Of a stretch of DNA of 64,000 bases, positions 21,386 through 26,658 are shown piece after piece (the stretch's first letter is position 1; the number at the start of each line of letters is the position of its first letter). The notes beneath the pieces were generated by a model. That model was given only the letters and a program-made list of their open reading frames with translations, was not told the DNA's origin and searched no databases. The DNA comes from an uncultured Pseudomonadota bacterium (lineage in GTDB: Bacteria; Myxococcota_A; UBA796; SXON01), in the NCBI GenBank assembly GCA_903844155.1, contig CAIMSU010000103.1, positions 1 to 64,000 on the forward strand, given 5' to 3'. Both the position numbers and the translations under genes were made by a program.

Positions 21386-21414
21386 TTGACGCACCCCCGG
21401 TGTGCCTGTACCCT
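21386..21414 (+). promoter_or_regulatory. candidate sigma70-type promoter TTGACG-N17-TACCCT
   Basis: exact 17-nt spacing, upstream of the radical SAM gene. Confidence 0.45.
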
Positions 21415-21458
21415 TCAAGTGCGGCGTTCCCTCCTTCGGGGCGCGTCAGGAGTTCCCG

Positions 21459-23072
21459 TTGGCTACCCCCTCCCTCGACCCCGGCCTCTACACCACGGCG
21501 GGTGCTCTGGTCGATCAGATGCTGATGGACACGATGCTTCAGCAGGGCCTCGCACCTGTCAGCACGTCGACGAAGATGCCCCGGGTCACGCTCGTCGTTG
21601 GTCCGTCACCATTCACGATGCCGCGCGGCTGGGAGTTTTTCCTCACGTCGCCCTACGAGGGCATCACGTACATCGCGACCGTGCTGCACAACGCCGGGTA
21701 CCCCGTGCGGATCGTGGATGTACGCTACGACCGCACGCCGCTGCAGACAGCCTACAACCAGATCATGGAAGGGACGGACGTTCTTGGGATCGCGACGTTT
21801 GAGGACAACTATCCGTTCTGCGAGGACTTGATTCGCGAGTGCAAGAACGCCAAGCCCAACATGCCGATCCTGCTTGGCGGCTCGCTGGTGACCAGCGTGC
21901 CGCACGTGTTCATGCGCGAGACACGCGCGGACATCGCGGTGATCTCCGAGGGCGAACTGACCATTCTGGAGGTCATGGACGCGTTCACGCAGGGGATGTG
22001 GTCCTCGCGGCTGCCGGAGATCAAGGGGATCTGGTACCGCGACGCGAAGGGCGTGCCGCACGCCAACCCGCCGCGGGGGCAGATGCCGAACCTCAACGCG
22101 CTGCCGAACATGCGCCTCGACCTCTGGCCGCAGTCCAAGGATCCGCGGGGTTTGCAGCCGCAGATCATCGCGTCGTACTCGCGCGGCTGCAAGATGGACT
22201 GCTCGTTCTGCTACCGCACCACGCCGCAGGAGCGGGTGAAGTCGCCCGAGAAGCTCCGCAGCGAACTGACGTGGTTGAAGCAGCAATACAAGACCGAGTT
22301 CATCTTCTTCGTGGACCTGACGTTCACTGCGCACAAGAAGCAGACGCTGCAGTACCTCGACGTGATCCGCGAGCACGACATCCGCTGGACCTGCCTCACC
22401 CGCAACGCGGACGTGGACGCGGAAGTCGGCAAGGCGATGGGGACGGCGGGCTGCGACATCGCGCTCTACGGAGTGGAATCGCTCACGCCCGCGGCCCTGA
22501 AGGAGGCGCGCAAGGGCTCCACGGAGAACCTGGCCATGAAGGCGATGAAAAACACCTGGGACGGTGGCGTGCGCTACGGCGGGCTCACAATCGTGGGTTT
22601 GCCGGGCGAAACCGAGGAGAGCCTCGACCACATGTGCAAGTGGGGCGAGGAGTACAAGCACATCACCCGCGTGAAGTACCTCTCGGCCATGCCCGGCACG
22701 ACCGTGTACCGGCAGGGCCTGGAGACGAAGGAGATCGCCAACGAAGTCGAGCATCTACGCTGGCTCTCGGTAGAGCAGGCGTTGGAGCGCGACGAATTCC
22801 TGAACTACAACGGCCTCCCCGACCACGTGATGCGCAGCGCCTACAAGCGGCTCTACGACAGCTACCAGGAAGGGCCCGTCATGGACTTCCACCATTATCC
22901 CGAGCATTTTGCCTACTTCGACCCCGAGCCGACGACCGCGTGGCGCGCGGAGTTCTCCTCGGCCGCCGCCGTCCCGGACCCCGGGACGCTCAAATACCGC
23001 GGCTTGAAAGCCTCCTCTCCCGGCGTCACGCTTGAGCGCACGTCCTCTGGCGACCTCGCCCTCTCCATCTGA
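21459..23072 (+). CDS. B12-binding-domain-type radical SAM protein
   Basis: N-terminal cobalamin-type domain, YSRGCKMDCSFCYRT cluster motif, IALYGVESLTPAALKEARKGS, GGLTIVGLPGETEES; TTG start with AGGAG preferred over GTG 21402, which lies inside the promoter. Confidence 0.85.
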   Translation: MATPSLDPGLYTTAGALVDQMLMDTMLQQGLAPVSTSTKMPRVTLVVGPSPFTMPRGWEFFLTSPYEGITYIATVLHNAGYPVRIVDVRYDRTPLQTAYNQIMEGTDVLGIATFEDNYPFCEDLIRECKNAKPNMPILLGGSLVTSVPHVFMRETRADIAVISEGELTILEVMDAFTQGMWSSRLPEIKGIWYRDAKGVPHANPPRGQMPNLNALPNMRLDLWPQSKDPRGLQPQIIASYSRGCKMDCSFCYRTTPQERVKSPEKLRSELTWLKQQYKTEFIFFVDLTFTAHKKQTLQYLDVIREHDIRWTCLTRNADVDAEVGKAMGTAGCDIALYGVESLTPAALKEARKGSTENLAMKAMKNTWDGGVRYGGLTIVGLPGETEESLDHMCKWGEEYKHITRVKYLSAMPGTTVYRQGLETKEIANEVEHLRWLSVEQALERDEFLNYNGLPDHVMRSAYKRLYDSYQEGPVMDFHHYPEHFAYFDPEPTTAWRAEFSSAAAVPDPGTLKYRGLKASSPGVTLERTSSGDLALSI

Positions 23073-23090
23073 CCGAGGCTCGAAAATCGC

Positions 23091-25549: not shown

Positions 25550-25558
25550 AATGCGGGG

Positions 25559-26008
25559 GTGAGACGAACCCGCAAACGATCTGGGCTGTTGCCGGTGGTC
25601 ATCCTCGTGGCCGGCGAGGCGTTGGGGTGTGGCGGAGGCAACTTCTTTGACAGCGCGAGCGGGTGCTGCTTTCACACCTGCAACGCCTGCTCACCCGAGG
25701 GCATGCACCAATGCTCCGACACCGGCGACCACGCCGATGCCGTTTGCACCGACCCGACGGGGATGTACGCCGACAGCGCGGACACGGGCTCGCGCGAGAC
25801 CGGGCACGACAGCGCGAGAGACAGCGCCGCGTCCGACTTCACCCCCGACACCGCTGTCGACACCGCCCCGCCTGATTCTGGGGGTCGGGACTCCGGAATC
25901 GACACCGGGGTGGACACCGCCCCGCCTGACTCCGGGATTGGCGACACCGCGACCTCAGACACGGGCGCTGGCGACACCGGCGTCGACACGGCGACGTCCA
26001 CGCCGTGA
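25559..26008 (+). CDS. Cys-rich lipoprotein with long DTG/DTA tether
   Basis: LVAGEALGCGGGNFFDSASGCCFHTCNACSPEGMHQC...DTAPPDSG repeats; 9 bp after the preceding stop. Confidence 0.6.
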   Translation: MRRTRKRSGLLPVVILVAGEALGCGGGNFFDSASGCCFHTCNACSPEGMHQCSDTGDHADAVCTDPTGMYADSADTGSRETGHDSARDSAASDFTPDTAVDTAPPDSGGRDSGIDTGVDTAPPDSGIGDTATSDTGAGDTGVDTATSTP

Positions 26009-26658
26009 CCCCTGCCGTCCGCTCCGCCTGGGCTGGCCGGACGGCCGCCGAGTACCGCTCAGCCGCCGTCGCCAGCGAGATGCTGCACTGGTGCATCGTG
26101 CTCGGCGTCGCCCCTGACCTCGTCGCCGAGGTGCACCGCGTGGTCGACGACGAGCTCAACCACGCCGACATGTCGCGCGCTGTGCACGAGGCAGCCGGCG
26201 GGCTGCCGACGGACGTGGTCATCGCGCGCGAGAGCTTGTCCCTGACGATCTGCCCGACGGAGACGTTGGAGCGACGGGCGTTGGCGGCGGCGTTCCAGGA
26301 GTTCGCCGTACACGAGACCGTCGCGCTGGAGTGCTTCCGCGAGATGCGCAAGCACGCGCTGGTGCCCATCGTCCGTTCGACGGTCGACCGGATCGCGAGG
26401 GATGAGGCCCGGCATCGCCGGGTTGGTTGGCGGCTCGTCGAATCCCTGTTGGCGCAGACCGGCGAGCGCAAGTGGCTGCAGACGATGGTGGCGCCGGCCG
26501 TCGACGGCGTGCTCCTCGCGTACGGGACGCGTCACGCGCCGACAGCGGAGGATCTGCGGTGGGGCCTGCTGGACCCGGACGCCTACCTGCGAGCCGTGCG
26601 ACGGGCGAGAGCCGGGCCGATCGCCCGGGAACTCGCAAGTAACATACTGTATTTCTGA
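26005..26658 (+). CDS. ferritin-like diiron protein
   Basis: SEMLHW, DDELNH, HETVALE, RDEARH = E, ExxH, E, ExxH ligand pattern; GTGA overlap with upstream lipoprotein. Confidence 0.75.
   Translation: MTPAVRSAWAGRTAAEYRSAAVASEMLHWCIVLGVAPDLVAEVHRVVDDELNHADMSRAVHEAAGGLPTDVVIARESLSLTICPTETLERRALAAAFQEFAVHETVALECFREMRKHALVPIVRSTVDRIARDEARHRRVGWRLVESLLAQTGERKWLQTMVAPAVDGVLLAYGTRHAPTAEDLRWGLLDPDAYLRAVRRARAGPIARELASNILYF

What the first reader, a model, noticed from the sequence alone, without database searches (positions are those of the whole stretch)
21386..26658. Five-gene coupled operon: B12-radical SAM / rubrerythrin-like / GyrB-MTase / Cys-rich lipoprotein / diiron ferritin-like
Seen: promoter-like TTGACG-N17-TACCCT, then genes separated by 18, -4 (ATGA), 9 and -4 (GTGA) bp. 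Such coupling suggests one functional unit. Components combine radical chemistry, a methyltransferase on an ATPase clamp, two ferritin-fold proteins and a secreted Cys-rich lipoprotein. Inference: an uncharacterised modification or biosynthesis pathway (lipid, small molecule or lipoprotein maturation), possibly with the lipoprotein as substrate. This is the best candidate for an undescribed system here.
Basis: partly seen in the sequence, partly recalled or inferred. Interest (0 to 1): 0.85.

Follow-up and report, generated by a model that had tools for sequence, protein, structure and literature searches.

The report
Sulfamate-making genes in a myxobacterium
The coupled genes are relatives of the enzyme set that puts the rare sulfamate group on the Streptomyces antibiotics nucleocidin and ascamycin, found here in an uncultured myxobacterium and, in related form, in several other bacterial phyla, so the system is already known in outline but much more widely spread than the published work found here says.

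Summary
The operon is real, but its boundaries and interpretation need correcting. The conserved unit is sulfatase-family protein (19950-21353), B12-radical SAM (true start 21459), pseudo-rubrerythrin (23091-23567) and GyrB-ATPase/methyltransferase fusion (23564-25549). The Cys-rich 'lipoprotein' and the second ferritin-like gene are not part of it: neither matches in any of 62 radical-SAM loci. The four genes match NucI/NucG, NucJ (62% identity), NucQ (36%) and NucP (48%, full length) of Streptomyces calvus, where nine such genes are needed to make the sulfamate group of nucleocidin (knockouts, PMC10946740); the ascamycin cluster has the same set. The window's own genome carries the other five (NucK, NucO, NucN and a second sulfatase-family protein on contig C277, NucL on C286) plus an APS kinase. 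In sister genomes most of the set lies in one cluster. Radical SAM, fusion and NucN occur together across 60 relatives (Fisher p about 1e-13). It is most likely a sulfamate-assembly pathway with unknown acceptor in Myxococcota. Homologous clusters occur in Actinomycetota, Azospirillum, Gemmatimonadota and Elusimicrobiota. What is new is the breadth outside actinomycetes; the chemistry of each step is unsolved in the papers found too.

The parts
19950..21353 (+). Sulfatase-family (PF00884) protein, counterpart of NucI/NucG; Thr in the place of the formylglycine Cys/Ser
   Evidence: Pfam 2.7e-28; directly upstream of the radical SAM in most relatives; 25-27% identity to the two S. calvus sulfatase-family genes; motif
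21459..23072 (+). B12-binding radical SAM protein, NucJ/AcmJ homologue; CxxxCxxC at residues 244-251
   Evidence: Pfam; start from homologue P0121; 62% identity over 534 residues to S. calvus L106; motif
23091..23567 (+). Pseudo-rubrerythrin, NucQ/AcmQ homologue, lacking several diiron ligands
   Evidence: 36% identity to S. calvus; alignment to solved rubrerythrins, where E53, H56 and E127 equivalents read H, N and R
23564..25549 (+). GyrB N-terminal ATPase + transducer (1-405) fused to class I methyltransferase (406-661), NucP/AcmP homologue; no TOPRIM part
   Evidence: Pfam/NCBIfam; 48% identity over the full length to S. calvus; 24 of 60 relatives hold the fusion; fold model matches GyrB 43K domain, TM 0.9
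25559..26008 (+). Cys-rich, DTG/DSG-repeat secreted-type protein; co-directional passenger, not part of the conserved unit
   Evidence: no family match; no tblastn match in 62 radical-SAM loci
26005..26658 (+). AurF-like ferritin-fold protein; co-directional passenger, not part of the conserved unit
   Evidence: weak AurF; homologues in 31 of 60 relatives, elsewhere on other contigs than the fusion

Best explanation
The window holds one part of a split sulfamate-assembly pathway homologous to that of nucleocidin and ascamycin. Shown here: homologues of all nine S. calvus sulfamylation genes, and an APS kinase, exist in this genome; core members co-occur across relatives; in sister genomes most of them form one cluster. 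Shown elsewhere (S. calvus and S. virens knockouts, PMC10946740): each of the nine is needed to put the sulfamyl group on the nucleoside. Inferred: PAPS supplies the sulfuryl group through the sulfotransferases NucK and NucO; NucN (arginine deiminase/amidinotransferase fold) brings the nitrogen from arginine; the radical SAM NucJ and the methyltransferases NucL and NucP tailor the carrier; the group is built before attachment, because knockouts pile up only the unsulfamylated nucleoside; a Thr-type sulfatase-family protein is a candidate for the final transfer. The GyrB half of NucP looks like an intact ATP-driven dimer clamp without the DNA-cleaving part, probably gating its methyltransferase. 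The acceptor in Myxococcota is unknown; a nucleoside is the default guess.
For: Gene-by-gene match to S. calvus T3018, the nucleocidin producer (L106): NucJ 62%, NucP 48% full length, NucL 57%, NucN 46%, NucO 42%, NucK 38-47% in two pieces, NucQ 36%, two sulfatase-family proteins 24-34%. Published sizes and annotations of acmG-acmQ match this set (PMC4257720). Knockout genetics. Co-occurrence in 60 relatives: radical SAM with fusion 23 both, 1+1 single, 35 neither, p = 2e-14; with NucN p = 3e-13. 42 of 62 radical-SAM loci also hold the GyrB part. L031 (genome G015) reads NucK-NucO-NucN-sulfatase-NucJ-NucQ-NucP in one run. PAPS genes sit in some clusters: L074 and L097 carry CysD-like and CysN-CysC genes. 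APS kinase in the own genome.
Against: No product is known from any non-actinomycete. The set is split over at least three contigs in this MAG (C103, C277, C286), and NucL is far from the rest, so joint expression is not shown; the MAG is 5% contaminated. Orthology of the sulfatase-family genes is weak (24-34%), and Thr at the active site is common among PF00884 proteins of this genome, so it is not special to the pathway. The order of chemical steps is unsolved even for nucleocidin.
Confidence: 0.82

Rival explanations
1. Same ancestry, other product: in Myxococcota the cluster makes a different sulfur-nitrogen or plain sulfated compound, for example an N-sulfonated guanidine or a sulfated small molecule, with the nucleoside antibiotic use being an actinomycete offshoot.
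For: No nucleoside-specific genes (glucosyltransferase, purine phosphorylase, halogenation or fluorination genes) stand out beside the module here; some lineages keep the radical SAM with sulfate-activation genes but no fusion within the fetched stretch (L070, L072); in the radical SAM tree the actinomycete sequences form one clade inside a wider family.
Against: All nine genes specifically needed for sulfamylation have homologues in this genome and core members travel together; the tree is midpoint-rooted.
Confidence: 0.15
2. Lipoprotein or lipid maturation pathway with the Cys-rich lipoprotein as substrate.
For: Short spacings on the same strand.
Against: Lipoprotein and AurF-like gene have no match in 62 radical-SAM loci and are absent downstream of the fusion in the nearest relative, 88% identical in the fusion (L048/L028).
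Confidence: 0.02
3. The GyrB half is a self-resistance decoy or target copy for a gyrase inhibitor made by the cluster.
For: Extra GyrB copies are a known self-resistance device for aminocoumarins (own knowledge); ATP-binding residues are intact.
Against: In S. calvus nucP is required for making the sulfamyl group, not just for survival (PMC10946740); known nucleoside sulfamates act on aminoacyl-tRNA synthetases or protein synthesis (PMC7613620 and PMC12945691 abstracts and text); TOPRIM part is absent.
Confidence: 0.05

Closest known systems
nuc cluster (nucleocidin), Streptomyces calvus and S. virens
   Same: All nine sulfamylation genes nucG,I,J,K,L,N,O,P,Q have homologues in this genome; four in the window; GyrB-MTase fusion collinear over its whole length
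   Different: Split over at least three contigs here, sulfatase gene directly upstream of nucJ on the same strand, NucK with an insert of about 75 residues, no fluorination or glucosylation genes seen beside the module
acm cluster (ascamycin/dealanylascamycin), Streptomyces sp. JCM9888
   Same: Same set acmG, I, J, K, L, N, O, P, Q by published size and annotation (PMC4257720)
   Different: acm carries PAPS genes and alanyl-tRNA synthetase-like genes in the cluster; compared here by published table only, not by sequence
HpnJ/BchE-type B12 radical SAM enzymes
   Same: Domain layout, best NCBIfam hit HpnJ 7e-36
   Different: Score 124 bits against a cut-off of 578; own family at 57-92% identity across phyla
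DNA gyrase subunit B
   Same: ATPase and transducer fold and ATP residues
   Different: TOPRIM and C-terminal parts replaced by a methyltransferase
Rubrerythrin / sulerythrin
   Same: Ferritin fold, E-value about 1e-17 to sequences of solved structures
   Different: Several diiron ligands replaced, no rubredoxin domain

Membership tests
nuc/acm sulfamate-assembly module | NucJ (B12 radical SAM) homologue | tested here: met
   62% identity over 534 residues to S. calvus
nuc/acm sulfamate-assembly module | NucP: GyrB ATPase fused to C-terminal methyltransferase | tested here: met
   48% over 660 residues
nuc/acm sulfamate-assembly module | NucQ pseudo-rubrerythrin lacking iron ligands | tested here: met
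   36%; ligands replaced; the paper reports two of six lacking in NucQ
nuc/acm sulfamate-assembly module | NucK, NucO, NucN, NucL in the same genome | tested here: met
   C277 and C286, 38-57% identity
nuc/acm sulfamate-assembly module | Two sulfatase-family proteins (NucG, NucI) | tested here: inconclusive
   Two present (19950-21353 and C277), but only 24-34% identity, in a genome with 32 PF00884 matches
nuc/acm sulfamate-assembly module | PAPS supply | tested here: inconclusive
   One APS kinase in the genome; its link to the module is not shown
nuc/acm sulfamate-assembly module | All genes in one cluster | tested here: not met
   Split over C103, C277 and C286 in this genome; seven genes in one run in sister genome G015 (L031). 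Note that the S. calvus PAPS genes also lie outside its cluster
nuc/acm sulfamate-assembly module | Sulfamate-bearing product | not testable with these tools
   needs culture or heterologous expression
HpnJ hopanoid radical SAM | NCBIfam HpnJ cut-off 577.6 bits | tested here: not met
   124 bits
DNA gyrase subunit B | TOPRIM and C-terminal domains after the transducer | tested here: not met
   Match ends at residue about 407; methyltransferase follows
Formylglycine sulfatase | CxPxR / SxPxR motif | tested here: not met
   TLPSH; Thr in 51 of 53 aligned members, including both S. calvus proteins
Rubrerythrin | Six diiron ligands | tested here: not met
   E53, H56, E127 equivalents are H, N, R

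The most novel reading that the evidence does not exclude
Sulfamate (S-N) biosynthesis is an old, widely exchanged bacterial pathway spread over several phyla of mostly uncultured bacteria, with the Streptomyces antibiotics as one branch, and it makes compounds other than 5'-sulfamoyl adenosines in Myxococcota.
Probability: 0.35. Interest if true: 0.75.

Novelty: new member of a known kind. Interest (0 to 1): 0.52.

Why it matters
The sulfamate group is prized in drug design and very rare in nature; its nine-gene assembly is known genetically but not chemically. Homologues at 57-65% identity across phyla give a deep alignment for finding active-site residues, a minimal gene set (radical SAM, fusion, NucN, NucK, NucO, NucL, NucQ) and new places to look for sulfamate compounds. 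It also gives the puzzling GyrB-methyltransferase fusion a biological context.

Tried and rejected
Lipoprotein/AurF-like gene as part of the unit: rejected by neighbourhood. FER1 (18286-19500) as partner: no match in the 62 loci; only 22 bits to the AurF-like gene at 26005. Assembly artefact of the fusion: rejected, 24 of 60 relatives and over 100 database proteins carry it. Plasmid carriage: among the rows shown only distant radical SAMs and GyrB-half matches were found on plasmids. Promoter and terminator scans: nothing above chance. Rfam: no RNA element in 19000-28000. Thr active site as a mark of the pathway: weakened by the control, because Thr is common among PF00884 proteins of the same genome (that alignment is rough, with 9 of 28 rows gapped at the site). 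Literature search for the fusion with radical SAM and rubrerythrin gave nothing useful; the match came when the wider gene set was searched together.

Full report
What was checked. The radical SAM gene starts at TTG 21459, behind GGAG, because its 92%-identical homologue P0121 starts at that residue. The promoter TTGACG-N17-TACCCT is present as letters, but its second half matches the consensus at 3 of 6 positions and a sigma-70 scan found nothing.

What the genes are. 19950-21353 is a PF00884 sulfatase-family protein; 21459-23072 has B12-binding and radical SAM domains; 23091-23567 is a weak rubrerythrin; 23564-25549 is the GyrB ATPase and transducer joined to a Methyltransf_11 domain; 25559-26008 has no family; 26005-26658 is weakly AurF-like. 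The residues E41, N45, D72, G76, Q347, K349 and T167, which by alignment to GyrB are ATP-site positions, are present in the window protein and invariant among 16 diverse fusions. The model matches the GyrB 43K domain at TM 0.9; the relative placing of the two halves is not reliable (pTM 0.58).

Which genes belong together. In 20 related genomes the recurring order is sulfatase - radical SAM - rubrerythrin-like - fusion, and the genes after the fusion differ. The lipoprotein and both AurF-like genes have no match in 62 radical-SAM loci from named records. Homologues of the second AurF-like gene occur in 31 of 60 genomes, the window's own included, on contigs other than that of the fusion except here. 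Across the same 60 genomes the radical SAM and the fusion occur together in 23, singly in 1 and 1, neither in 35 (p = 2e-14); the radical SAM and the NucN homologue agree in the same way (p = 3e-13). Relatives are not independent samples, so these p-values overstate the evidence.

The wider cluster. Radical SAM loci from Streptomyces, Sinosporangium, Mangrovihabitans, Azospirillum sp. B506, Gemmatimonadetes, Elusimicrobia and other MAGs carry, besides the fusion, a second methyltransferase, one or two sulfotransferases, an arginine-deiminase-fold protein, sulfatase-family proteins and in some cases PAPS-making genes. 42 of the 62 loci hold the GyrB part near the radical SAM; many of the rest are contig ends.

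Identification. A search of papers for this combination found the nucleocidin knockout study (PMC10946740). [quoted passage not shown] NucJ is annotated as radical SAM (PMC8694150). The ascamycin cluster table lists the same set (PMC4257720). One fetched locus, L106, is S. calvus T3018 itself. Direct comparison gives NucJ 62%, NucP 48% over its full length, NucL 57%, NucN 46%, NucO 42%, NucK 38-47% in two pieces, NucQ 36% and the sulfatase-family proteins 24-34%. In the window's genome NucK, NucO, NucN and a second sulfatase-family protein lie together on contig C277, NucL on C286 and one APS kinase on C242. In sister genome G015 seven of the genes lie in one run (L031).

Mechanism. Shown: gene content, linkage, motifs. 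Shown by others: need for each gene in S. calvus. Inferred: sulfuryl from PAPS via the sulfotransferases, nitrogen from arginine via NucN, tailoring by the radical SAM and the two methyltransferases, and transfer of a ready-made group. The last point rests on the published finding that all nine deletions give only the unsulfamylated F-Met-I. The PF00884 proteins have Thr, not Cys or Ser, at the formylglycine position in 51 of 53 aligned members, including both of S. calvus. Thr is the nucleophile in related phospho-group transferases (own knowledge), so a transferase role is conceivable; but Thr is also common among other PF00884 proteins of this genome, so this is weak. The rubrerythrin-like protein has H, N and R in place of three iron ligands, so ordinary peroxidase action is unlikely.

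Evolution. In a radical SAM tree 18 actinomycete sequences form one supported clade inside a family that includes Myxococcota, Gemmatimonadota, Azospirillum, Elusimicrobiota and others. The root is only a midpoint, so direction of transfer is open; several record titles are wrong (see notes).

Verdict. A real, coupled, conserved unit, already known in outline as the sulfamate-assembly module. The contribution is the correct boundaries, the identification, a full set of homologues in a myxobacterial genome and the spread over phyla, which the papers found here do not describe; papers outside that open library could.

Noticed in passing
L083:574-3723 and L089:13591-14991: Histidyl-tRNA synthetase-like genes (PF13393) lie near the radical SAM in Nonomuraea and Micromonospora loci that lack the GyrB fusion in the fetched stretch; nucleoside sulfamates are known to hit aminoacyl-tRNA synthetases, so this may be self-resistance or aminoacylation as in ascamycin.
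   Followed up: partly
L050, L052, L062, L107: MAG records titled Bifidobacterium breve or Klebsiella pneumoniae carry contigs that group with Myxococcota (L050 is the same contig as genome G004, same genus as the window); the titles look wrong.
   Followed up: partly
L029:7133-7963 (-), also in L031, L036, L039, L105: A 4Fe-4S protein recurs beside the NucK-NucO-NucN genes or the fusion in Myxococcota loci; role unknown.
   Followed up: no
L115:8113-9342 (-) (own genome C277): The NucK homologue carries an insertion of about 75 residues in the middle of the sulfotransferase domain.
   Followed up: no
window 17267-19500: PhnD-like binding protein overlapping by 4 bases with an AurF-like ferritin-fold protein: a separate coupled pair not linked to the sulfamate unit.
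   Followed up: no
own genome (G000), loci L121-L150: 32 PF00884 matches in one 8.1 Mb genome, many with Thr where formylglycine sulfatases have Cys or Ser.
   Followed up: partly
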